Part shown: positions 50,201 to 64,000 of the stretch, in pieces
How the letters are laid out: each line of letters starts with the position of its first letter
Position numbering within the stretch: position 1 is the stretch's first letter
Source: Eublepharis macularius
Taxonomy: Eukaryota > Chordata > Lepidosauria > Squamata > Eublepharidae
Assembly (NCBI RefSeq): GCF_028583425.1
Contig: NC_072793.1
Coordinates: 103,525,689 to 103,589,688 of the forward strand
DNA: 64,000 nucleotides
Direction: 5' to 3'
Notes under the pieces: generated by a model
Databases searched by the model: none
Seen by the model: the letters and a program-made list of their open reading frames with translations, nothing else
Told to the model about the DNA's origin: nothing
Program-made: the position numbers and the translations under genes

Positions 50201-52940
50201 CCTGTTTTTCTACCTGATCATCCCTTCCAAAGGTCCCCATCAACTGATGCTACTGATACTTATAATAATATTAATACTACTACTAATAATAATTTATATG
50301 ACACCCTTCAGGACAACTTAATGTCCACTCAGAGCGGTTTACAAAGTATGTTATTATTATTCCCACAACAAACACCCTGTGAGGTGGGTGGGGCTGAGAG
50401 AGCTCCAGAGAGCTGTGACTAGACCAACGTCACCTAGCTGGCTTCAAGTGGAGGAGTGGGGAATCAAACCCGGCTCTCTAGATTACAGTCCCCCACTCTT
50501 AACCACAACACCAAACTGGTTCGCTTGGGTTAAAGATCATAAAGCTTGCTATTAGAAACATAATTCTGGAATATCATGCCTCAAACAGCCATGTCAGCTA
50601 AGAGTCTTGATGACTGAAAGCACAATGGCACATTTATAATGTGGAACTCTCTGTGACAACTCGGGCCTAGTCGGGCCTGTAAGATGGAGATGTTCCTCCA
50701 GGCCTTTTGGTAGTTGAGGCAACTGGGCCTCCAATTCGGCCTCTTATGGAGGGGGGCGGTCCCCTCCCTGGTCTTTGTTGTGTTCATCTGCTGATTGTCA
50801 ACAGCCCCCGTGGGCCCAAAGGACTGTATACGGAACTGTGCAATGAGCACGGCTGAGAGTGATTTTCTGTATTGTATTTGCTCTTTTATGCTACCAGTTT
50901 TGTCTAATTTTTTGTCTTTAAATGATGTGATCCACTCTGAGCCTGCTTGCAGGGAGAGTGGACTACAAATTCAGTAAATAAATAAATATAACAGCACTGT
51001 TATGATTGTTTGACATCTCATTCAGAAATATCCACTGATATCTAAAAGACTAAGGCAATGTAAAATAGGAAACTGGATGAGGCAGATGTATTAGTGTGCT
51101 GAGAAGACTCTCTCTCGGAATTTCTTTTCTAGATAGGCAGGCAATCAGGTCCAACTAATTACCACATTCAAGGATGGTAAGAACAGAACTAGTTAGCAAT
51201 CTCAGATTTTTTTCAAGTGATACAGTGGTTCTCCTGTGACAACTGACTTATTTTACCTGCTTCAGCCATTTAAACTATTTTACTGAACTACTATTTAAAT
51301 GAGATGGGCACCACTAGCACAGGGCCAACTTGAATAATATGTTAATTCATAAGGAAGAAATCAGTGTTGTACAGTGGTTAGAGTATTTGACTAGACCCAG
51401 GAAGGCTGAGGTTTGAATCCCCACTCTGTCATGAATGTTTGCTACATGACTTTGGGCCAGTCATACACACGAAGACTGACCTATCTCAGAGAGTTGTTGT
51501 GAAGATAAATGGAGAAAGTTGTAAGCAACTTTGGGTCCCCACTGGGGTGAAAGACAAGGTATAAATGAAGGTATGTGAAAGGGGGGAGAGATATGAACTA
51601 GAGGCAAGCATACAGAATTAGCTATCTCTAGATTCAATTATGGTCAGTAGCTTAGATGGCTTAACAACACAGTATACTTCCAAGTGTCACATATAGCCCT
51701 TCTGATGCCACATGTCACAGATGTCCCAGAGGACATCAGGAAAGAACTTTAATCTCTACCAAACGGTCCAATATGAAAAGAGAATACTGATCTATGCATT
51801 ATATGGGCATAACAAGAAAAGTCTGACTACATAAGAACCAGCCACATACTTCCAAGAAGCTACCCCTATTCTCAGAAACCAATATCCACTGTTCCTGAAC
51901 AAGGATGTTCTATTTAGCCATGACTGATGATGATGATTCCTACTTCATAAAGCTGCCTAAAATGTCATCTAAACAAGCAGTTGTCACCACATCTTGCGGC
52001 AGCAGACTTTAAGTCAATTTTACATTATCGGAACTATTTTTTTTTATAAATTCTCCTGAAAATTGGGTATTTCTAGGTTCTATTGTTATGAGGGAGGGAG
52101 GTAAGTTTCGTTTTTATTTTATAGGACATGTACAGGAACCATGTGGCACATTAAATACTACAATATTTTGTTCCTGCTTAGTATGTACGTAGCAGCCTGC
52201 TACTAGTCAGACATGTTACAGAGTGGGGTGAACAGTAGGATCACGAAACCCAAGAAGCACAGGATGAAATTTAAGTATATAAAAATTCAAATACAGCCAA
52301 GAAAGTACAGAGACTATTCAAAATAGCAGTAATTAGCCATTTCTCTAGCATGGCTACATTAACACCTGTAACAACTGACAGAGCAGTTGGAATAAAATCT
52401 TGTTAATCTTTAAGGTGCCACCTTTGACTAACACAGCAACTCCTTTGGAACCCATACAAGTTTTTAAAAATCTCTTTATCAAATCCAGACTAAAACACAA
52501 AGCCTTAAAACGGCCCTTTCCAGCCATTTAATTCTCACCCAGCCCTTTTACTCAAATCCATGGAACTCCAGCCTCCTGCTCAATCTACTATAAGGAAAGG
52601 CAGTGTTGTACAGGGATCTTAATACCAGGCTAGCTCTTAGGAAACCCGACGTCTAATCCCCACCCTGAAGTTTAGTGAGTGACTGTGGGCCAGCCTGCCT
52701 ACCAGCCTCTCTCTCTCGCAGCCTACCATACGTCAGTGCTTGTTGGAAGGGGGAAATGGAGAAGGGGAGAATGAGGCGCCTCACTTTGAGCTCCTTGGAA
52801 GAAGAGCGGGATAAAATCCCCGCCCGCCCCCCAACTCTTCAATCTATTACCCGCCACTAGCCGCTCTTTTTTATTGTAACCCACTCCAGCCCAGGTCTCC
52901 CTCCCACTCCCTCGCCCCTTACTTTGCTCAGCCGCCCCAT
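38285..52940 (-). CDS. PPAN: PPAN, Peter Pan homologue (Ssf1-type Brix-domain ribosome biogenesis factor), 532 aa
   Basis: PPAN is a nucleolar factor needed for 60S subunit assembly (yeast Ssf1/Ssf2), binding pre-rRNA through a Brix domain. Twelve coding exons on the minus strand: 52923-52940, 49940-50110, 48604-48705, 47356-47406, 46550-46720, 45630-45706, 44176-44283, 43677-43800, 41237-41315, 39715-39844, 39424-39584 and 38285-38691. They sum to 1599 nt and join in frame (532 aa plus stop). All donors are GT and all acceptors AG; exon 2 uses GTGCAG and exons 8 and 11 use GTTAGT. The protein starts MGRLSKTKNQKK; the Brix domain covers about residues 30-320 with VPHSFVFHRGHVGKNL, GPLGVTHFLVFSKT, RLPGGPSLTFRV and MATMFQNMFPSINVH. 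After it come a Lys/Glu-rich coiled segment, an acidic stretch and a basic tail (KPRKRCK and many Lys/Arg) suited to nucleolar localisation. Longer than the human protein (473 aa), mainly in the tail. Introns 3 and 6 host snoRNAs. Confidence 0.97.
39889..39932. repeat. (GCAC)n/(GC)n/(AC)n microsatellite in PPAN intron 10-9
   Basis: ATGCACGCACGCACGC followed by GCGCGC and then (AC)n. It lies about 45 bp from the acceptor of exon 10 on the upstream side of the transcript. Alternating purine-pyrimidine DNA of this kind can adopt Z-form. Confidence 0.85.
40940..41060. repeat. Repeat family B, compact inverted pair
   Basis: AGAGTCCAGTAGCACCTTTA with AGACTAACC faces AGTCTTGAAGGTGCTACTGG with ACTCTTTTC; the right side continues with CTACTACGGACTAACACAGC. 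Arms are nearly complementary with only a few bases between. Located in the PPAN intron between exons 9 and 10. Confidence 0.7.
41362..43459 (+). mobile_element. Internally deleted L1 LINE (non-autonomous, lacks ORF2), 2.1 kb
   Basis: It is bounded by a perfect 14-bp target duplication GGGAACAGTAACCC (41348-41361 and 43460-43473) and ends in a short A-tail after AATTAAAATTG. The 5' part (GGGAGACTTCCGGTTTGGCT) looks like an L1 5' UTR. A frame at 42257-42658 (133 codons) has a charged heptad-like stretch starting MIQLIREMKESLIKSTKDI, like an L1 ORF1 coiled coil, but then stops; no reverse transcriptase or endonuclease sequence follows. The 3' part has a G-rich polypurine tract (AAAAGGGGGGAGGGGGAGGG, near 43340), typical of L1 3' UTRs. 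Inserted in the PPAN intron between exons 8 and 9, antisense to the gene. Confidence 0.85.
42730..43090 (+). repeat. Twofold tandem repeat inside the L1 3' region
   Basis: Two diverged copies of a ~230-bp unit: GAAGAATTAGTAAATTAGG with GGGAAATGTAATGTATAGTT and later GAAGAAATTAGCAAATTAAG with GGGAAATGTAATGGAAAGTT. Each is followed by the same order of phrases (TGATA, CTATATATA-like, AAGAG, AAATTGTTAAT). Confidence 0.7.
43955..44005 (+). repeat. (GGGA)n(GA)n polypurine tract in PPAN intron 7
   Basis: About 28 bases of GGGA repeats followed by about 22 bases of GA repeats. It lies in the intron between exons 7 and 8; in transcript sense it is a long CT-rich tract some 150 bp before... the acceptor of exon 8 is upstream, so it is not that acceptor's pyrimidine tract. 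Confidence 0.85.
44385..44575 (+). repeat. tRNA-derived SINE (reptile type)
   Basis: TTTTGCATCCCTGAGCTCCC, AAATTCAACCCCATCC (B-box-like), then CAGTCTGAGACCCTCGACAG and ATGGGCCAATGGACCAACTC with CAGTACACGACAGCTTCATA. This matches the layout of the tRNA-headed SINE also seen at 12.84 and 2.46 kb. Confidence 0.6.
44924..45000 (-). ncRNA. SNORD105: C/D-box snoRNA, SNORD105-like (guide to 18S), PPAN intron 6
   Basis: On the minus strand the ends TTGGATGCA and TGCATCCAA form a closing stem. Box C (AATGATGA) is at 44985-44992 and box D (CTGA) at 44933-44936, with internal D'/C'-like CTGATGA sequences. The 10 bases AAGTAAACGC, one base before box D, are complementary to GCGTTTACTT of vertebrate 18S rRNA; by the D+5 rule the first U of the UUU is targeted, corresponding to human U799. 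SNORD105 and SNORD105B are hosted by PPAN in human, so location, boxes and guide agree. Processed from the intron after splicing. Which of the two copies is 105 and which 105B is not decided. Confidence 0.92.
45275..45420 (+). repeat. MIR-like tRNA SINE with (AC)n end
   Basis: GAACTGCTGTGGTTAGAAAG (A-box-like), GAGCCCTGGGTTCAAATCTT (B-box-like), then CAGAGTGACCTTAGACCACT, the CORE-type 'GTGACCTTGGGC' phrase, and a run of AC near 45390. Confidence 0.65.
45985..46160 (+). repeat. MIR-like tRNA SINE, diverged
   Basis: GATCAGAGTTTAAATCCCTG (B-box-like) followed by CTCCGAGTGACCTTGTGTCT. Head and core parts only. Confidence 0.5.
47562..47636 (-). ncRNA. SNORD105B: C/D-box snoRNA, SNORD105B-like (guide to 18S), PPAN intron 3
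   Basis: Minus strand: box C AATGATGA (complement at 47623-47630), box D' CTGA (47607-47610), C'-like TGTGATTC, and box D CTGA (47568-47571). The bases just before box D, TTCAAAGTAAACGC plus one base, are complementary over 14 nt to GCGTTTACTTTGAA of 18S rRNA. The D+5 rule again selects the human U799 equivalent. A closing stem is weaker than in the intron 6 copy (CTGG/CCAG with flanking pairs). The two snoRNAs share AGTAAACGC and CTGATGCATC around box D and are clearly paralogues. Confidence 0.92.
48125..48460. repeat. Repeat family B, longest copy, inverted pair
   Basis: Left half: GGAGTTAGCCGTGTTAGTCT, AATCCAGTAGCACCTTTAAG, CTAACCAATTTTATTGCAGC, CATAAGCTTTCAAGAATCAA. Right half (complement): CTGACGAAGAGAAATTGATT, CTCGAAAGCTTATGCTGCAA, TAAAATTGGTTAGTCTTAAA, GGTGCTACTGGACTC. 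About 100 bp of pyrimidine-rich DNA separates the halves. It is located in the PPAN intron between exons 3 and 4. Confidence 0.75.
48780..49939. other. PPAN intron 2, no other gene seen
   Basis: AT-rich sequence with no clear repeat or RNA gene. A 99-codon plus-strand frame at 49556-49855 has no recognisable features. Confidence 0.4.
50275..50525 (-). repeat. MIR-like tRNA SINE
   Basis: CACTCAGAGCGGTTTACAAA, CACCCTGTGAGGTGGGTGGG, GGGAATCAAACCCGGCTCTC and CTCTTAACCACAACACCAAA are the minus-strand reading of a tRNA-headed CORE-type SINE; B box as GGTTTGATTCC. The left end has an (ATT/ATA)n run. Confidence 0.75.
50650..51000 (+). mobile_element. L2 LINE 3' end
   Basis: GGGCCTGTAAGATGGAGATG, TTCCTCCAGGCCTTTTGGTA and later GATCCACTCTGAGCCTGCTT with AGGGAGAGTGGACTAC and (AAATA)n. 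The same order is seen at the end of the L2 copy at 21.0-21.3 kb (GGCCTGCAAGATGGAGTTGT, TTCCTCCAGGCATGC). Confidence 0.75.
51365..51580 (+). repeat. MIR-like tRNA SINE, complete-looking copy
   Basis: Head with A box TACAGTGGTTAGAGT and B box GGTTTGAATCC, CORE-type body (CATGACTTTGGGCCAGTCAT, GAGAGTTGTTGTGAAGATAA) and a LINE-type tail (CCCCACTGGGGTGAAAGACA, AGGTATAAATGAA). The best copy in the window for the family. Confidence 0.8.
51581..52384. other. PPAN intron 1, no other gene seen
   Basis: No clear repeat or RNA gene. Confidence 0.4.
52385..52455 (+). repeat. Repeat family B fragment
   Basis: AATCTTGTTAATCTTTAAGG, GTGCCACCT, then GACTAACACAGCAACTCCTT, i.e. the right half of the family. 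Confidence 0.5.
52595..52700 (+). repeat. MIR-like tRNA SINE fragment near the PPAN first exon
   Basis: GGCAGTGTTGTACAGGGATC, AACCCGACGTCTAATCCCCA and GAGTGACTGTGGGCCAGCCT are the head and first body part of the SINE seen at 51.4 kb. Confidence 0.55.
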
Positions 52941-53110
52941 GATGCCAACACGTTCCTTCTTCTCCCGCCTCGGCCATGCGGCGCCCAAGGAGTATCGGTC
53001 ACGTGCGCACTTCTTTCACCCCTCCAGATCTCCTTCCGTCCCGCCCCTAAAGAGTTCCGGTTCAGTCGCCGCCGACTCTGTGCTCACTAATCGACAATCC
53101 GTCTGCCTCT
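52941..53110 (-). promoter_or_regulatory. PPAN: PPAN promoter with CACGTG E-box
   Basis: GC- and CpG-rich relative to the surroundings, without a TATA box. A canonical E-box CACGTG at 53000-53005 lies 60 bp before the start codon, the type of site bound by Myc/Max and USF, which are known to drive ribosome-biogenesis genes. ETS-like CCGGAAC is at about 53054. The start site was not located precisely. Confidence 0.6.
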
Positions 53111-53676
53111 TTCGCAGAGAACGGAAGGGAGTTAAAAAAAAAAAACACTCCCAGATTTCTGCATCTAAGATACCCATTCTAAGCAGAATAGACTTGTCTG
53201 CCCTCCCCCCACTGAAATTCTGCAAGTGTCTCCTTGGTAGACTTACTTGTGAGTAAACATGCATCGACTCATATGAGGCTGCAAACCCTACGAACGCTCC
53301 CGTGGGACTTTACCCTCACTGAACTCCGAGGGACTCCTTCCAAATAAGCATGCTTAACATCGGACCATCCAAAAACAGTTTCCGTATTCCAAAGGTTTCC
53401 TGTTAACTTGTTTTCGTTTCCATCTATGCCCAGGAATGCTTCAGCCTTGCAACTTTTAAAGATACAAGGGCGCCCTTTTAAAAAGGCAACAACTTTGATG
53501 TGAAAGACGCAGAATAACAACAACGTGGACGTTAGGACACCTTTATAGAACATTCTACATTGATTTAAATAAATTTATGTATTTATTTAAATTTTATTTA
53601 TTTATTTTTGATGCATTTTTATTCCCCCTTTCCATCGAGCTTTGGGTCTCCAAGTTTCTCCCTCTGGCCAACCCAC
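53111..53676. other. Intergenic, simple AT repeats
   Basis: A-run near 53134-53145, unique-looking DNA, then (TTTA)n/(ATTT)n-like sequence at 53560-53615, probably the tail of a LINE or SINE on the minus strand. Confidence 0.45.
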
Positions 53677-53904: not shown

Positions 53905-54839
53905 CCAAATGAAATTCCAGTAACAGCCTCTCTTTTTCCTTCTTTAAGAAAATCTATTCTCAGTTGGTCTTGAAAACGCAATAGTACTCTTTGTGGAAAT
54001 GGGGGGAAACACATTCATAACAAATACACAAATGTGTAAGAAATGTATATTTCAATTCTAAATGTATGTGATGTGTTTGTACATTGCTAAATGCCAAGAT
54101 AAACACAGGAGGCAACAGAGGCTGAAATCTATGAATGCTTACCTAAGAGTAAGTCCTATAAACTCAGTGAGATTTCCTTCTGAGGAGACCTGCTGAGGAG
54201 TATATTGTAATAATTTTGTAATTATTGCTAACTGCTTTGGTAGAGAAGGGTAGAATTTTTCCTGTGTATTTTTCTCTGGATGGAGCTGCCTCATTATGAG
54301 ATGATCCTCTGCCTGCCTCTCCAACCAACAAGAACTTGAGTGACATCACAGCTAGCAGCTGCTACACACTGGAAGGGGATGCAGCCAGTCAGTAGTACCA
54401 GTCCTGGAAAGCCAGGGCCACCTGTAGAGAATGAAGGAGCCAATTTACATGTTACACTGCCCATGAAGTTAGAAAGAAACTGTAATTTTTTATTTAAAAT
54501 GGTCATATCCCCTCTTTCCTCAAGGCAGCTTACAAGTCACAATTAAACATTACAATTAAAACTAGTAGAATAAAACCCTAGATACCCCAGTAAGAGCCAT
54601 GTACACATGACTATGGCCTTAGTTTCTTATAAGACTTGGAATTTGAGTACAGAATTTGTGTATACTCTTTTCTCTTAAATTGAATAAGGGGAGTCACAGT
54701 GCATTCCTAAACAGAATTACATCCCTCTAAATAAATGGAAATTAATGGTTTTAGAAGAGTGTACCTGTCATTCAGACTGCACAGTTAGTCAAGAACACTG
54801 AATAGATATCTCTTAAACTTTAAAGGGACAGAGTAAAAG
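53905..54839. other. Boundary zone between PPAN upstream DNA and the satellite
   Basis: AT-rich sequence. A frame open on both strands at 54294-54546 lacks a matching donor and is not accepted as an exon. Positions about 54500-54580 (CCCTCTTTCCTCAAGGCAGC, TTACAAGTCACAATTAAACA) look like an old LINE 3' tail. Confidence 0.4.
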
Positions 54840-57800
54840 CCGGAACAAGATGGAACAGGCCGGAACGGGCACTAAAGAAAGGCCAGTGCCACAAAAAACA
54901 GTGAGATGTGTTAGAGACACTCCAGAACAATATTTTAGAAATGAAAACTCTGGACTGCCCCGCTTTTATTAATCCGTTCCATGCCAAAAAGCTCCCAGAA
55001 CAGCACAAAACAGCCCGGAACGGGCACTAAGGAAAGGCCAGTGCCACAAAAAAGAGGGGGATGTGTTAGAGACACTCCAGAACGATATTTTAGAAATGAA
55101 AACTCTGGACTGCCCCGCTATTATTAACCCATTCCATGCCAAAAAGCTCCCGGAACAGCACAAAACAGCCCGGAACGGGCACTAAAGAAAGGCCAGTGCC
55201 ACAAAAAAGAGGGGGATGTGTTAGAGACACTCCAGAACAATATTTTAGAAATGAAAACTCTGGACTGCCCCGCTATTATTAACCCATTCCATGCCAAAAA
55301 GCTCCCGGAACAGCACAAAACAGCCCGGAACGGGCACTAAAGAAAGGCCAGTGCCACAAAAAAGAGGGGGATGTGTTAGAGACACTCCAGAACGATATTT
55401 TAGAAATGAAAACTCTGGACTGGCACCCTTTAATTAACCCGTTCCATGCCAAAAAGCTCCCGGAACAAAACAAAACAGCCCGGAACGGGCACTAAAGAAA
55501 GGCCAGTGCCACAAAAAAGAGGGGGATGTGTTAGAGACACTCCAGAACAATATTTTAGAAATGAAAACTCTGGACTGCCCCGCTTTTATTAACCCGTTCC
55601 ATACCAAAAAGCTCCCAGAACAGCACAAAATAGCCCGGAACGGGCACTAAAGAAAGGCCAGTGCCACAAAAAACAGTGGGATGTGTTAGAGACACTCCAG
55701 AACAATATTTTAGAAATGAAAACTCTGGACTGCCCCGCTTTTATTAACCCGTTCCATGCCAAAAAGCTCCCGGAACAACACAAAACAGCCTGGAACTGGC
55801 ACTAAAGAAAGGCCAGTGCCACAAAAAACATTGAGATGTGTTAAAGACACTCCAAAACAATATTTTAGAAATGAAAACTCTGGACTGTCCCACTTTTATT
55901 AACCCGTTCCATGCCAAAAAGCTCCTAGAACAGCACAAAACAGCCCAGAACAGACACTAAAGAAAGGCCAGTGCCACAAAAAACATTGGGATGTGTTAGA
56001 GACACTCCAGAACAATATTTTAGAAATGAAAACTCTGGACTGCCCCACTTTTATTAACCTGTTCCATGCCAAAAAGCTCCCGGAACAGCACAAAACTGCC
56101 TGGAACGGGCACTAAAAAAAGGCCAGTGCCACAAAAAAGAGGGGGATGTGTTAGAGACACTCCAGAACAATATTTTAGAAATGAAAACTCTGGACTGGCA
56201 CCCTTTAATTAACCCATTCCATGCCAAAAAGCTCTTGGAACAGCACAAAACAGCACAGAACGGGAACTAAAGAAAGGCCAGTGCCACAAAAAACAGTGGG
56301 ATGTGTTAGAGACACTCCAGAACAATATTTTAGAAATGAAAACTCTGGACTGCCCCACTTTTATTAACCCATTCCATGCCAAAAAGCTCCCAGAACAGCA
56401 CAAAACAGCCCGGAACGGGCACTAAAGAAAGGCCAGTGGTAAAAATAAAAAAATTTTAAAAAGAAAGAAAGGCCGGTGCCACAAAAAACAGTGGGATGTG
56501 TTAGAGACACTCCAGAACAATATTTTAGAAATGAAAACTCTGGACTGGCACCCTTTAATTAACCCATTCCATACCAAAAAGCTCCCGGAATAGCACAAAA
56601 CAGCCCGGAACGGGAACTAAAGAAAGGCCAGTGCCACAAAAAACAGTGGGATGTGTTAGAGACACTCCAGAACAATATTTTAGAAATGAAAACTCTGGAC
56701 TGCCCCGCTTTTATTAACCCGTTCCATACCAAAAAGCTCCCAGAACAGCACAAAATGGCCCGGAACGGGCACTAAAGAAAGGCCAGTGCCACAAAAAACA
56801 GTGGGATGTGTTAGAGACACTCCAGAACAATATTTTAGAAATGAAAACTCTGGACTGCCCCGCTTTTATTAACCCGTTCCATGCCAAAAAGCTCCCGGAA
56901 CAGCACAAAACAGCCTGGAACTGGCACTAAAGAAAGGCCAGTGCCACAAAAAACAGTGGGATGTGTTAGAGACACTCCAGAACAATATTTTAGAAATGAA
57001 AACTCTGGACTGCCCCACTTTTATTAAACCGTTCCATGCCAAAAAGCTCCCGGAACAACACAAAAGAGCCCGGAACGGGCACTAAAGAAAGGCCAGTGGT
57101 AAAAATAAAAAAATTTTAAAAAGAAAGAAAGGCCAGTGCCACAAAAAACAGTGGGATGTGTTAGAGACACTCCAGAACAATATTTTAGAAATGAAAACTC
57201 TGGACTGGCACCCTTTAATTAACCCATTCCATGCCAAAAAGCTCCCGGAATAGCACAAAACAGCCCGGAACGGGAACTAAAGAAAGGCCAGTGCCACAAA
57301 AAACAGTGAGATGTGTTAGAGACACTCCAGAACAATATTTTAGAAATGAAAACTCTGGACTGCCCCACTTTTATTAACCTGTTCCATGCCAAAAAGCTCC
57401 CGGAACAGCACAAAACTGCCTGGAACGGGCACTAAAAAAAGGCCAGTGCCACAAAAAAGAGGGGGATGTGTTAGAGACACTCCAGAACAATATTTTAGAA
57501 ATGAAAACTCTGGACTGGCACCCTTTAATTAACCCATTCCATGCCAAAAAGCTCTTGGAACAGCACAAAACAGCACAGAACGGGAACTAAAGAAAGGCCA
57601 GTGCCACAAAAAACAGTGGGATGTGTTAGAGACACTCCAGAACAATATTTTAGAAATGAAAACTCTGGACTGCCCCACTTTTATTAACCCATTCCATGCC
57701 AAAAAGCTCCCAGAACAGCACAAAACAGCCCGGAACGGGCACTAAAGAAAGGCCAGTGGTAAAAATAAAAAAATTTTAAAAAGAAAGAAAGGCCGGTGCC

Positions 57801-60800
57801 ACAAAAAACAGTGGGATGTGTTAGAGACACTCCAGAACAATATTTTAGAAATGAAAACTCTGGACTGGCACCCTTTAATTAACCCATTCCATACCAAAAA
57901 GCTCCCGGAATAGCACAAAACAGCCCGGAACGGGAACTAAAGAAAGGCCAGTGCCACAAAAAACAGTGGGATGTGTTAGAGACACTCCAGAACAATATTT
58001 TAGAAATGAAAACTCTGGACTGCCCCGCTTTTATTAACCCGTTCCATACCAAAAAGCTCCCAGAACAGCACAAAATGTCCCGGAACGGGCACTAAAGAAA
58101 GGCCAGTGCCACAAAAAACAGTGGGATGTGTTAGAGACACTCCAGAACAATATTTTAGAAATGAAAACTCTGGACTGCCCCGCTTTTATTAACCCGTTCC
58201 ATGCCAAAAAGCTCCCGGAACAGCACAAAACAGCCTGGAACTGGCACTAAAGAAAGGCCAGTGCCACAAAAAACAGTGGGATGTGTTAGAGACACTCCAG
58301 AACAATATTTTAGAAATGAAAACTCTGGACTGCCCCACTTTTATTAAACCGTTCCATGCCAAAAAGCTCCCGGAACAACACAAAAGAGCCCGGAACGGGC
58401 ACTAAAGAAAGGCCAGTGGTAAAAATAAAAAAATTTTAAAAAGAAAGAAAGGCCAGTGCCACAAAAAACAGTGGGATGTGTTAGAGACACTCCAGAACAA
58501 TATTTTAGAAATGAAAACTCTGGACTGGCACCCTTTAATTAACCCATTCCATGCCAAAAAGCTCCCGGAATAGCACAAAACAGCCCGGAACGGAAACTAA
58601 AGAAAGGCCAGTGCCACAAAAAACAGTGAGATGTGTTAGAGACACTCCAGAACAATATTTTAGAAATGAAAACTCTGGACTGCCCCGCTTTTATTAACCC
58701 GTTCCATACCAAAAAGCTCCCAGAACAGCACAAAATGGCCCGGAACGGGCACTAAAGAAAGGCCAGTGCCACAAAAAACAGTGGGATGTGTTAGAGACAC
58801 TCCAGAACAATATTTTAGAAATGAAAACTCTGGACTGCCCCGCTTTTATTAACCCGTTCCATGCCAAAAAGCTCCCGGAACACCACAAAACAGCCTGGAA
58901 CTGGCACTAAAGAAAGGCCAGTGCCACAAAAAACAGTGGGATGTGTTAGAGACACTCCAGAACAATATTTTAGAAATGAAAACGCTGGACTGCCCCACTT
59001 TTATTAAACCGTTCCATGCCAAAAAGCTCCCGGAACAACACAAAAGAGCCCGGAACAGGCACTAAAGAAAGGCCAGTGCCACAAAAAAGAGGGGGATGTG
59101 TTAGAGACACTCCAGAACGATATTTTAGAAATGAAAACTCTGGACTGCCCCGCTATTATTAACCCATTCCATGCCAAAAAGCTCCCGGAACAGCACAAAA
59201 CAGCCCGGAACGGGCACTAAAGAAAGGCCAGTGCCACAAAAAAGAGGGGGATGTGTTAGAGACACTCCAGAACAATATTTTAGAAATGAAAACTCTGGAC
59301 TGGCACCCTTTAATTAACCCGTTCCATGCCAAAAAGCTCCCGGAACAAAACAAAACAGCCCGGAACGGGCACTAAAGAAAGGCCAGTGCCACAAAAAAGA
59401 GGAGGATGTGTTAGAGACACTCCAGAACAATATTTTAGAAATGAAAACTCTGGACTGCCCCGCTTTTATTAACCCGTTCCATACCAAAAAGCTCCCAGAA
59501 CAGCACAAAATAGCCCGGAACGGGCACTAAAGAAAGGCCAGTGCCACAAAAAACAGTGGGATGTGTTACAGAGACACTCCAGAACAATATTTTAGAAATG
59601 AAAACTCTGGACTGCCCCGCTTTTATTAACCCGTTCCATGCCAAAAAGCTCCCGGAACAGCACAAAACAGCCTGGAACTGGCACTAAAGAAAGGCCAGTG
59701 CCACAAAAAACATTGAGATGTGTTAAAGATACTCCAAAACAATATTTTAGAAATGAAAACTCTGGACTGTCCCACTTTTATTAACCCGTTCCATGCCAAA
59801 AAGCTCCTAGAACAGCACAAAACAGCCCAGAACAGGCACTAAAGAAAGGCCAGTGCCACAAAAAACAGTGGGATGTGTTAGAGACACTCCAGAACAATAT
59901 TTTAGAAATGAAAACGCTGGACTGCCCCACTTTTATTAAACCGTTCCATGCCAAAAAGCTCCCGGAACAACACAAAAGAGCCCGGAACAGGCACTAAAGA
60001 AAGGCCAGTGCCACAAAAAAGAGGGGGATGTGTTAGAGACACTCCAGAACGATATTTTAGAAATGAAAACTCTGGACTGCCCCGCTATTATTAACCCATT
60101 CCATGCCAAAAAGCTCCCGGAACAGCACAAAACAGCCCGGAACGGGCACTAAAGAAAGGCCAGTGCCACAAAAAAGAGGGGGATGTGTTAGAGACACTCC
60201 AGAACAATATTTTAGAAATGAAAACTCTGGACTGGCACCCTTTAATTAACCCGTTCCATGCCAAAAAGCTCCCGGAACAAAACAAAACAGCCCGGAACGG
60301 GCACTAAAGAAAGGCCAGTGCCACAAAAAAGAGGGGGATGTGTTAGAGACACTCCATAACAATATTTTAGAAATGAAAACTCTGGACTGCCCCGCTTTTA
60401 TTAACCCGTTCCATACCAAAAAGCTCCCAGAACAGCACAAAATAGCCCGGAACGGGCACTAAAGAAAGGCCAGTGCCACAAAAAACAGTGGGATGTGTTA
60501 CAGAGACACTCCAGAACAATATTTTAGAAATGAAAACTCTGGACTGCCCCGCTTTTATTAACCCGTTCCATGCCAAAAAGCTCCCGGAACAGCACAAAAC
60601 AGCCTGGAACTGGCACTAAAGAAAGGCCAGTGCCACAAAAAACATTGAGATGTGTTAAAGATACTCCAAAACAATATTTTAGAAATGAAAACTCTGGACT
60701 GTCCCACTTTTATTAACCCGTTCCATGCCAAAAAGCTCCTAGAACAGCACAAAACAGCCCAGAACAGGCACTAAAGAAAGGCCAGTGCCACAAAAAACAG

Positions 60801-63800
60801 TGGGATGTGTTAGAGACACTCCAGAACAATATTTTAGAAATGAAAACTCTGGACTGTCCCACTTTTATTAACCCGTTCCATGCCAAAAAGCTCCTAGAAC
60901 AGCACAAAACAGCCCAGAACAGGCACTAAAGAAAGGCCAGTGCCACAAAAAACAGTGAGATGTGTTAGAGACACTCCAGAACAATATTTTAGAAATGAAA
61001 ACTCGACTGCCCCACTTTTATTAACCCATTCCATGCCAAAAAGCTCCCAGAACAGCACAAAGCATCCCGGAACGGGCACTAAAGAAAGGCCAGTGCCACA
61101 AAAAAGAGGGGGATGTGTTAGAGACACTCCAGAACAATATTTTAGAAATGAAAACTCTGGACTGGCACCCTTTAATTAACCCATTCCATGCCAAAAAGCT
61201 CCCGGAATAGCACAAAACAGCCCAGAACGGGCACTAAAGAAATGCCAGTGCCAGAAAAAACAGTAAGATGTGTTAGAGACACTCCAGAACAATATTTTAG
61301 AAATGAAAACTCTGGACTGCCCCACTTTTATTAACCCATTCCATGCCAAAAAGCTCCCAGTAAAGCACAAAACAGCCCAGAACGGGCACTAAAGAAAGGC
61401 CAGTGCCACAAAAAACAGTGGGATGTGTTAGAGACACTCCAGAACAATATTTTAGAAATGAAAACTCTGGACTGCCCCGCTTTTATTAACCCGTTCCATG
61501 CCAAAAAGCTCCCGGAACAGCACAAAACGGCCCGGAACGGGCACTAAAGAAAGGCCAGTGGTAAAAATAAAAAAATTTAAAAAAAAAGGCCAGTGCCACA
61601 AAAAAGAGGGGAATGTGTTAGAGAGACTCCAGAACAATATTTTAGAAATGAAAACTCTGGACTGCCCCACTTTTATTAACCCGTTCCATGCCAAAAAGCT
61701 CCAGGAACAGCACAAAACAGCCTGGAACGGGCACTAAAGAAAGGCCAGTGCTACAAAAAAAGTGAGATGTGTTAGAGACACTCCAGAACAATATTTTAGA
61801 AATGAAAACTCTGGACAGCCCCACTTTTATTAACCCGTTCCATGCCAAAAAGCTCCCGGAACAACACAAAAGAGCCCGGAACGGGCACTAAATAAAGGCC
61901 AGTGCCACAAAAAACAGTGGGATGTGTTAGAAACACTCCAGAACAATATTTTAGAAATGAAAACTCTGGACTGGCACCCTTTAATTAACCCATTCCATGC
62001 CAAAAAGCTATTAGAACAGCACAAAACAGCCCGGAACGGGAACTAAAGAAAGGCCAGTGCCACAAAAAACAGTGAGATGTGTTAGAGACACTCCAGAACA
62101 ATATTTTAGAAATGAAAACTCTGGACAGCCCCACTTTTATTAACCCGTTCCATGCCAAAAAGCTCCCGGAACAACACAAAAGAGCCCGGAACGGGCACTA
62201 AAGAAAGGCCAGTGCCACAAAAAAGAGGGGGATGTGTTAGAGACACTCCATAACAATATTTTAGAAATGAAAACTCTGGACTGGAACCCTTTAATTAACC
62301 CATTCCATGCCAAAAAGCTCCCGGAATAGCACAAAACAGCCCGGAACGGGCACTAAAGAAATGCCAGTGCCACAAAAAAGAGGGGGATGTGTTAGAGACA
62401 CTCCAGAACAATATTTTAGAAATGAAAACTCTGGACTGCCCCACTTTTATTAACCCATTCCATGCCAAAAAGCTCCCAGTAAAGCACAAAACAGCCCAGA
62501 ACGGGCACTAAAGAAAGGCCAGTGCCACAAAAAACAGTGGGATGTGTTAGAGACACTCCAGAACAATATTTTAGAAATGAAAACTCTGGACTGCCCCGCT
62601 TTTATTAACCCGTTCCATGCCAAAAAGCTCCCGGAACAGCACAAAACGGCCCGGAACGGGCACTAAAGAAAGGCCAGTGGTAAAAATAAAAAAATTTAAA
62701 AAAAAAGGCCAGTGCCACAAAAAAGAGGGGAATGTGTTAGAGAGACTCCAGAACAATATTTTAGAAATGAAAACTCTGGACTGCCCCACTTTTATTAACC
62801 CGTTCCATGCCAAAAAGCTCCAGGAACAGCACAAAACAGCCTGGAACGGGCACTAAAGAAAGGCCAGTGCTACAAAAAAAGTGAGATGTGTTAGAGACAC
62901 TCCAGAACAATATTTTAGAAATGAAAACTCTGGACAGCCCCACTTTTATTAACCCGTTCCATGCCAAAAAGCTCCCGGAACAACACAAAAGAACCCGGAA
63001 CGGGCACTAAATAAAGGCCAGTGCCACAAAAAACAGTGGGATGTGTTAGAAACACTCCAGAACAATATTTTAGAAATGAAAACTCTGGACTGGCACCCTT
63101 TAATTAACCCATTCCATGCCAAAAAGCTATTAGAACAGCACAAAACAGCCCGGAACGGGAACTAAAGAAAGGCCAGTGCCACAAAAAACAGTGAGATGTG
63201 TTGGAGACACTCCAGAACAATATTTTAGAAATGAAAACTCTGGACAGCCCCACTTTTATTAACCCGTTCCATGCCAAAAAGCTCCCGGAACAACACAAAA
63301 GAGCCCGGAACGGGCACTAAAGAAAGGCCAGTGCCACAAAAAAGAGGGGGATGTGTTAGAGACACTCCATAACAATATTTTAGAAATGAAAACTCTGGAC
63401 TGGAACCCTTTAATTAACCCATTCCATGCCAAAAAGCTCCCGGAATAGCACAAAACAGCCCGGAACGGGCACTAAAGAAATGCCAGTGCCATAAAAAACA
63501 GTGAGATGTGTTAGAGACACTCCAGAACAATATTTTAGAAATGAAAACTCTGGACTGCCCCACTTTTATTAACCCATTCCATGCCAAAAAGCTCCCAGTA
63601 AAGCACAAAACAGCCCAGAACGGGCACTAAAGAAAGGCCAGTGCCACAAAAAACAGTGGGATGTGTTAGAGACACTCCAGAACAATATTTTAGAAATGAA
63701 AACTCTGGACTGCCCCGCTTTTATTAACCCGTTCCATGCCAAAAAGCTCCCGGAACAGCACAAAATGGCCCGGAAAGGGCACTAAAGAAAGGACAGTGGT

Positions 63801-64000
63801 AAAAATAAAAAAAAATTTTAAAAAAAGGCCAGTGCCACAAAAAAGAGGGGAATGTGTTAGAGACACTCCAGAACAATATTTTAGAAATGAAAACTCTGGA
63901 CTGCCCCACTTTTATTAACCCGTTCCATGCCAAAAAGCTCCCGGAACAGCACAAAACAGCCTGGAACGGGCACTAAGGAAAGGCCAGTGCTACAAAAAAA
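54840..64000 (-). repeat. 155-bp satellite array (at least 9.1 kb, about 58 monomers) with higher-order units
   Basis: Monomers of 155 bp repeat head to tail to the window end. Landmarks per monomer on the plus strand: TTTTATTAACCCGTTCCATG, CCAAAAAGCTCCCGGAACAG, CGGAACGGGCACTAAAGAAA, GGCCAGTGCCAC, GGATGTGTTAGAGACACTCC, AGAACAATATTTTAGAAATG and AAAACTCTGGACTG. Strand '-' is assigned only because the copies at 536-1345 read the other way. Higher-order units: 660 bp (four monomers plus a 40-bp insert) doubled to 1320 bp at about 56.0-58.6 kb; 932 bp (six monomers plus 2 bp) at about 59.0-60.8 kb; 1119 bp (seven monomers plus 34 bp) at about 61.3-63.9 kb. Repeated 64-codon open frames on the minus strand are by-products, because 155 is not divisible by three and the frame shifts at each monomer. 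The array continues past the window. Confidence 0.97.

What the first reader, a model, noticed from the sequence alone, without database searches (positions are those of the whole stretch)
54840..64000. Young 155-bp satellite with three different higher-order repeat registers
The array is not a simple monomer ladder. Variant monomers recur with spacing 660 and 1320 bp (56.0-58.6 kb), then 932 bp (59.0-60.8 kb), then 1119 bp (61.3-63.9 kb). These equal 4x155+40, 6x155+2 and 7x155+34. Copies one unit apart differ by only a few bases (for example 56041-57300 against 57361-58620), while neighbouring monomers differ more. That is the pattern of recent local amplification by unequal exchange or replication slippage, as in centromeric or subtelomeric satellites, here within about 2 kb of a housekeeping gene. 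I know of no name for this family.
Basis: seen in the sequence. Interest (0 to 1): 0.75.

Follow-up and report, generated by a model that had tools for sequence, protein, structure and literature searches.

The report
Satellite born inside a giant transposon
The 155-bp repeat array is the swollen inverted end of a roughly 94-kb jumping DNA element of the Foldback type in a vertebrate (probably leopard gecko) genome; one copy's end repeats have expanded into a long, locally private satellite, showing how new satellites can arise from transposons.

Summary
The array and its registers are real. A 155-bp monomer runs from 54.85 kb to the window end. The larger periods are 660/1320, 932 and 1119 bp, with copies 99.5-99.8% alike (95.5% at 660). 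It is not a free-standing subtelomeric satellite. Of 18 arrays fetched elsewhere in the genome, 17 start at the same terminus, GGGACAGGGTAAAAG, as does this one. Exact termini (131) facing each other within 100 kb are '+-' 15 times and '-+' never. All 7 element-end pairs compared carry a 9-bp target-site duplication (five exact, two with one mismatch). The array therefore lies in the long terminal inverted repeat of a Foldback-like DNA transposon. The window's element starts at 54825 (TSD AACTTTAAA) and ends at C4:103674318 (AACTTTTAA), 93.8 kb in all; its left array, sampled to 64.6 kb, compares with a median of 1.6 kb elsewhere. Near-identical monomers are private: 430 identical pairs within this array, none with 192 monomers of the 18 others. 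No transposase was found; Mutator affiliation is inferred from TSD length and long TIRs. Tetris, Rehavkus and Galileo in insects are precedents. My open-access searches listed no vertebrate Foldback satellite, though fish papers use a related label.

The parts
54816..54824 (.). Left 9-bp target-site duplication AACTTTAAA of the window's element; the right copy AACTTTTAA follows the right terminus at C4:103674318
54825..54859 (+). Left terminus of the transposon (GGGACAGAGTAAAAGCCGGAACAAGATGGAACAGG), a variant of the family terminus; its outer 15 bp are unlike the monomer, the rest is a diverged monomer start
54854..64000 (+). Visible part of the left TIR's 155-bp tandem array; read without a break to C4:103619688 and sampled to C4:103645100
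54860..56040 (+). Start of the array: plain 155-bp ladder, no larger period above it (lags 155 and 310 both 0.942, computed on 54840-56040)
56041..58620 (+). Higher-order block 1: 1320-bp 8-mer made of two 660-bp types (99.8% between 1320-bp copies; 95.5% between the 660-bp types)
59000..60863 (+). Higher-order block 2: 932-bp 6-mer, one monomer carrying +2 bp (99.6%)
61326..64000 (+). Higher-order block 3: 1119-bp 7-mer, 99.5% between the first two copies; third copy cut by the window end
56424..56478 (+). Origin of the extra 40 bp: 25-bp A-rich insert 56439-56463 between two copies of AAAGAAAGGCCAGTG (the second with one change). With up to one mismatch the variant is found only in this array (31) and on contig C65 (8)
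52701..53200 (.). CpG-rich stretch (GC 0.546, CpG observed/expected 0.81), perhaps the promoter of an unidentified neighbouring gene; outside the element

Best explanation
The array is the left terminal inverted repeat (TIR) of one copy of a Foldback-like cut-and-paste DNA transposon, most likely of the Mutator (MULE/Rehavkus-Foldback) superfamily and non-autonomous in the copies read. Shown: shared termini, inward-facing pairs, 9-bp target-site duplications, arrays abutting the terminus, and a 93.8-kb span for this copy. Inferred: (1) the monomer is the subterminal region of the transposon in many copies, so each monomer is a candidate extra transposase-binding site; (2) a transposase made elsewhere moved copies with short arrays; (3) in this copy, probably after it landed, unequal exchange or slippage in blocks of 6, 7 and 8 monomers enlarged the left array to about 64.6 kb or more.
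For: Arrays fetched at 18 other places (two of them the two ends of one element): 17 of 18 begin at the terminus and 12 of 18 end at the same inner junction; inner flanks where matched are mostly 95-99% alike, two short pieces 81-87%. 131 exact termini in the genome (74 + 57), control 0; neighbours within 100 kb: 15 '+-', 4 '--', 3 '++', 0 '-+', and 0 of 20000 strand shuffles reach the excess of '+-' over '-+'. TSDs: of 6 dispersed pairs, 5 exact and 1 with one mismatch; window pair 8 of 9, the only place with one mismatch among 16 found for 'right terminus + predicted TSD' with up to three mismatches (control 0), on the right contig, in the right orientation, 94 kb downstream, with reversed monomer running into that terminus. 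The C3 element, read in full, is 18.3 kb with 6.5-kb arms 98.9% alike. A probe inside the window's element beyond the sampled array is 98-100% like three other copies. Privacy of near-identical monomers. Precedent: Tetris, passages seen.
Against: No transposase was found: of 10 frames scanned, 5 are reverse transcriptases, 1 a leucine-rich repeat outside the element, 4 without a hit; none of the 17 MULE-domain places is within 43 kb of an exact terminus (inexact termini were not all located). Most exact termini (101 of 131) have no exact inward partner within 100 kb; partners with mismatches, or broken copies, may explain this, but I did not check. The C9 copy shows no right arm and no second TSD in the following 10 kb. 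The C13 copy has an extra left terminus; only the outer one matches the right TSD. The window's TSD copies differ at one base. C4:103645101-103674149 was only probed, and the probe at 103665000 matched nothing fetched. One of 18 arrays (L021) lacks the terminus, and L013 and L014 show no shared inner flank. On average this array's monomers are no more alike (0.931) than they are like the others (0.934); others among themselves 0.947. Whether the array grew before or after insertion is not shown.
Confidence: 0.9

Rival explanations
1. An independent, older satellite was captured by, or lies next to, a transposon; the transposon only carries it about.
For: Passages of PMC10218199 raise the same question for satellites inside transposons. 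One of 18 arrays lacks a terminus. The terminal domain beyond its outer 15 bp is simply a diverged monomer, so its likeness to the monomer does not by itself show the direction.
Against: 17 of 18 arrays fetched begin at the terminus; the TSDs lie outside terminus and array; among the arrays fetched, a long one was seen only here.
Confidence: 0.07
2. It is a Foldback-like transposon but not a MULE: a P-superfamily (Galileo-like) or other cut-and-paste element.
For: Galileo of Drosophila is a P-superfamily element with Foldback-like long TIRs holding tandem repeats with transposase-binding sites (abstract of PMC3688188). No MULE transposase was found inside any copy read or beside exact termini.
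Against: The TSD is 9 bp in 7 of 7 pairs; P elements make 7-8 bp (recalled). The Merlin-type domain PF12762, another candidate by TSD length (recalled), had no match in the genome, whereas MULE domains have 17 places. P-type transposases were not searched.
Confidence: 0.2
3. Monomer array of a LINE 5' UTR, as in mouse L1 (my first idea after seeing shared left edges).
For: Shared left terminus and shared right flank; LINE frames in the interior.
Against: Inward-facing pairs with a 9-bp TSD outside both termini; the LINE frames lie in both orientations and one L1-like element is nested in one copy.
Confidence: 0.01
4. The large periods or the array's great length are assembly artefacts.
For: A 25.9-kb separate contig, C65, carries the same variant from 1.1 to 23.2 kb, so this locus was hard to assemble or has two haplotypes. 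No reads were available.
Against: Three periods each with their own variants and small differences between copies, and termini with matching TSDs at both sides, are not what a mis-join gives.
Confidence: 0.05

Closest known systems
Tetris (Drosophila virilis Foldback transposon, TIR-220 satellite), PMC4079207, passages seen
   Same: Long TIRs with internal tandem repeats that share sequence with the terminal domain, long satellite-like arrays grown inside the element, TSD 8-10 bp, no transposase found, Mutator suggested by its authors
   Different: 220-bp AT-rich unit; arrays of up to 66 copies (here 233 monomers read and more sampled); there repeats mostly did not cluster by contig, except in two of three complete copies, whereas here near-identical copies are confined to the array and three higher-order registers are present; host is an insect
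Rehavkus (Rehavkus-1_TC with TCsat23), passages of PMC10218199 and PMC6446971
   Same: 9-bp TSD; tandem repeat (164 bp) in the inverted termini
   Different: Hosts given there are arthropods and annelids; arrays mostly of five and eight monomers; Rehavkus-1_TC is 9.5 kb; Rehavkus has a transposase with PHD finger, not found here
Galileo (Drosophila, P superfamily), abstract of PMC3688188
   Same: Foldback-like long TIRs whose tandem repeats hold extra transposase-binding sites; a model for why arrays could be favoured
   Different: P-superfamily transposase; TSD shorter (7 bp, recalled)
[quoted passage not shown] title seen in a reference list; that the host is Xenopus is recalled)
   Same: Satellite made from a DNA transposon, in a vertebrate
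   Different: A miniature element by its title; not read, so TSD, TIRs and array structure were not compared
Drosophila melanogaster FB elements (recalled)
   Same: Foldback structure, tandem repeats in TIRs, about 9-bp TSD (recalled)
   Different: FB's 155-bp unit is built of 31-bp repeats (recalled; the search did not confirm it); here identity at lag 31 is 0.30, with a maximum of 0.34 at lag 41 and a mean of 0.26, so no 31-bp sub-period; the shared number looks like coincidence
SINE-derived satellites of squamates, passages of PMC10702118
   Same: Satellites made from mobile elements in geckos; rare in Eublepharis
   Different: Derived from SINEs, linked to subtelomeres; here no tRNA or Rfam match in the window and a DNA-transposon end

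Membership tests
Foldback-like DNA transposon (structural class) | Long terminal inverted repeats | tested here: met
   C3 element: arms of 6.5 kb, 98.9% alike, around a 5.1-kb spacer; 15 '+-' and 0 '-+' neighbours among 131 exact termini
Foldback-like DNA transposon (structural class) | Tandem repeats inside the TIRs | tested here: met
   155-bp arrays next to the terminus in 17 of 18 arrays fetched; in the window's element an array at the left end, and reversed monomer (251 bases read) at the right end
Foldback-like DNA transposon (structural class) | Target-site duplication flanking both ends | tested here: met
   9 bp in 7 of 7 pairs compared: 5 exact, 2 with one mismatch
Mutator (MULE) superfamily | TSD of about 9 bp and long TIRs | tested here: met
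   TSD lengths of MULE groups are in passages of PMC6446971, which gives TIRs of 14-500 bp for its elements, far shorter than here
Mutator (MULE) superfamily | MULE transposase encoded by an autonomous copy with these termini | tested here: inconclusive
   17 PF10551 places in the genome, none near an exact terminus; no transposase among 10 frames scanned; most copies were not read
Rehavkus | Transposase with PHD finger | not tested
   No transposase sequence in hand
Merlin superfamily | IS1595-type DDE transposase in the genome | tested here: not met
   PF12762: 0 matches in the genome, 2 candidates scored
Centromeric or subtelomeric satellite | Location at centromeres or chromosome ends | tested here: inconclusive
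   Of 116 exact termini on contigs of known length, 5 lie in the outer 10% at either end and 99 in the middle half: not subtelomeric; centromere positions are unknown

The most novel reading that the evidence does not exclude
Vertebrates, in which a 2019 survey found no convincing Mutator-type transposons, hold a young Foldback/Rehavkus-type family whose ends work as satellite nurseries: each copy brings a short array of transposase-binding monomers to a new site, and now and then one array escapes into unequal-exchange amplification and becomes a new higher-order satellite inside a mobile unit approaching 100 kb.
Probability: 0.35. Interest if true: 0.78.

Novelty: new variant of a known kind. 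Interest (0 to 1): 0.6.

Why it matters
How satellites are born, and how higher-order repeats start, is an old open question. Here short arrays in sister copies, the insertion with its TSD, and one much larger array with several higher-order registers are all in one genome, so the steps can be ordered. A 2019 survey asked whether MULEs are really absent from vertebrates (passages); a vertebrate family with a MULE-like TSD and long TIRs, in a genome with MULE domains, makes that testable.

Tried and rejected
LINE 5'-UTR monomer idea: proposed, dropped after the inward pairs and TSDs. Rfam and tRNA/tmRNA (SINE) origin: no match in the window at the gathering threshold or by ARAGORN. CENP-B box: no exact core; one site at two mismatches, judged chance. 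31-bp sub-period as in FB: not seen. Merlin transposase: no match. Transposase inside fetched copies: frames of 100 to 170 aa or more were listed; 10 frames were scanned (6 with a Pfam hit: 5 reverse transcriptase, 1 leucine-rich repeat outside the element; 4 without). In one search the window's own array was not among the places listed, so that tool's lists of repeats are incomplete. No search in other vertebrates was possible with the collections on hand.

Full report
OBSERVATION. Tandem Repeats Finder reports a 155-bp array from 54854. Aligned copies differ at 2 of 1260 (1320 bp apart), 4 of 932 and 6 of 1119 positions; the two 660-bp half-units differ at 30 of 660, so the first register is better called an 8-mer of 1320 bp. 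Monomer order is not random: the best lags (8, 6 and 7 monomers) are reached by 0, 21 and 0 of 2000 shuffles of monomer order. The odd lengths have simple causes: a 40-bp addition (a 25-bp A-rich insert with a 15-bp duplication of AAAGAAAGGCCAGTG; 5 bp shorter in block 3, which also has one 154-bp monomer) and a 2-bp addition in block 2. The duplication beside an A-rich insert resembles a very short LINE-driven insertion; that is an inference.

THE ARRAY CONTINUES. The window lies at C4:103525689-103589688 of a 2.24-Gb genome. The array was followed without a break to C4:103619688, the insert-bearing variant recurs to C4:103641037, and a probe at C4:103645000 is still monomer: 64.6 kb from the terminus, the last 25 kb by sampling only. 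The best larger periods differ along the array (for example 1321, 2360, 3478, 1430).

WHERE ELSE. One search scored 19 of 800 first-look candidates and listed array pieces on nine contigs; its list did not hold the window's own array and is incomplete. I fetched 18 arrays with flanks, of which L024 and L026 are two ends of one element: 17 of 18 begin at the terminus GGGACAGGGTAAAAG (up to two mismatches) next to unrelated flanks, and 12 of 18 end at the same inner junction; lengths run from 0.94 to 6.9 kb, median 1.57 kb. Beyond the array most copies share kilobases at 95-99% identity with variable deletions; two short pieces are 81-87% alike, and L013 and L014 show no such sharing.

IT IS A TRANSPOSON WITH LONG TIRs. 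A search with the inner unit gave pairs in opposite orientation a few kb to tens of kb apart. Genome-wide there are 277 termini within one mismatch, control 0, and 131 exact ones. Exact neighbours within 100 kb face inwards 15 times and outwards never (4 '--', 3 '++'). The other 101 exact termini have no exact inward partner within 100 kb; I did not check whether their partners carry mismatches or are lost. For the six dispersed pairs fetched, the 9 bases outside both termini agree: GTTGCCCCT, TGCATATCC, AGAAAAAAG, GCTAATGCC and CAAAAAACA exactly, and AACTGTAAT/AAGTGTAAT with one mismatch. In the C13 pair a second, inner left terminus does not match. The C9 copy shows no right arm or second TSD in the next 10 kb. 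The C3 element, read in full, is 18.3 kb with 6.5-kb arms that are 98.9% alike.

THE WINDOW'S ELEMENT. Its left terminus is at 54825, preceded by AACTTTAAA. Searching the genome for a right terminus followed by that TSD, with up to three mismatches, gave 16 places, control 0; the only one with a single mismatch is C4:103674302-103674327, on the same contig, in the expected orientation, 94 kb away. The 251 bases read there show reversed monomer, then the terminus, then AACTTTTAA. The element spans 93,806 bp. A probe at C4:103655000 is 98-100% identical to the interior of three other copies; a probe at C4:103665000 matches nothing fetched. So the left array makes up about two thirds of the element or more.

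PRIVATE AMPLIFICATION. Of 233 monomers read here and 192 from the 18 other arrays, compared over 155 core columns, 430 pairs are identical within this array and none between it and the others; the nearest relative is inside this array for 223 of 233, tied for 8 and outside for 2. Mean identities do not show this: 0.931 within, 0.934 to the others, 0.947 among the others. So this array holds old monomer diversity, and the near-identical blocks arose within it. The insert variant (up to one mismatch) occurs 31 times here and 8 times on C65, a 25.9-kb contig, probably another haplotype or a stray part of this array.

MECHANISM. Beyond its outer 15 bp or so, the terminal domain is a diverged monomer (alignment over about 65 bp): the array runs up to the very end of the transposon. 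Tetris shows a comparable likeness, and in Galileo the TIR tandem repeats hold extra transposase-binding sites (abstract). I infer that monomers are copies of the subterminal region with binding sites, that short arrays move with the element, and that unequal exchange or slippage enlarges some of them. None of these steps was tested.

SUPERFAMILY. The 9-bp TSD and long TIRs point to Mutator; passages of PMC6446971 give 9 bp for Rehavkus and several MULE groups, TIRs of 14-500 bp, and little evidence of MULEs in chordates. MULE domains occur in 17 places of this genome; the nearest to an exact terminus, C8:57592119, is 43.6 kb away. Merlin-type transposase had no match. Of 10 frames scanned, none is a transposase. 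I therefore file it as Foldback-like by structure, Mutator by inference only.

HOST. The contig lengths seen, taken in order of number as order of size (C8, C10 and C11 were not seen), put half of the 2.237 Gb at the sixth contig, 145.6 Mb. A table row in passages of PMC12774848 gives '145 Mb' and '6' for the leopard gecko reference (I read these as N50 and L50; the column heads were not shown) and the text about 2.2 Gb. The host is very probably Eublepharis macularius; this is an inference.

LITERATURE. Searches (open-access PMC only; two searches showed 15 of 84 and 12 of 1198) listed, by title and start of abstract, no Foldback or MULE-type satellite-bearing transposon in a vertebrate. Against novelty: 3 of the 9 papers holding 'MULE-NOF' are on fish genomes (listing only), Repbase has MuDR entries from zebrafish and mammals whose identity the 2019 survey doubts, and a miniature-transposon-driven satellite is cited (host Xenopus recalled). 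Subscription papers, Repbase and Dfam were not searched. On checking the calls I lowered the novel case from 0.40 to 0.35 and interest from 0.62 to 0.60 for these reasons.

Noticed in passing
G000, 17 places, e.g. C9:105211123-105211410: MULE transposase domains (PF10551) over Pfam's cut-off in a vertebrate genome, one in an open frame of 577 aa, although a 2019 survey found little evidence of MULEs in chordates. Their sequence was not read.
   Followed up: partly
L029 2490-9247 (C13): A nested L1-like element with a 1302-aa endonuclease/reverse-transcriptase frame and a 294-aa upstream frame, inserted inside the C13 copy with 15 bp of overlap at the joint.
   Followed up: partly
L028 3343-3999 and L039 (C13): The left end of the C13 copy has a second, inner terminus preceded by the same bases that lie outside the right end, reversed, suggesting a fold-back rearrangement of the end.
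   Followed up: no
L021 5704-7800; inner flanks of other copies: A second, GC-rich 66-bp tandem repeat followed by simple repeats beyond the 155-bp array, of variable length between copies.
   Followed up: no
G000 C2:19982077-19986707 and C9:67788921-67789543: Four termini in one orientation about 1.5 kb apart on C2, and a 0.6-kb inward pair on C9: a possible tandem of ends and a miniature copy.
   Followed up: no
genome-wide exact termini: Of 116 termini on contigs of known length (131 in all), 99 lie in the middle half and 5 in the outer 10% at either end.
   Followed up: partly
both arms of the C3 element and L025 7138-9729: Reverse-transcriptase pieces (Pfam RVT_1; CR1/L2-like is recalled) lie in the arms, so LINE pieces entered before the arms were made alike.
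   Followed up: partly
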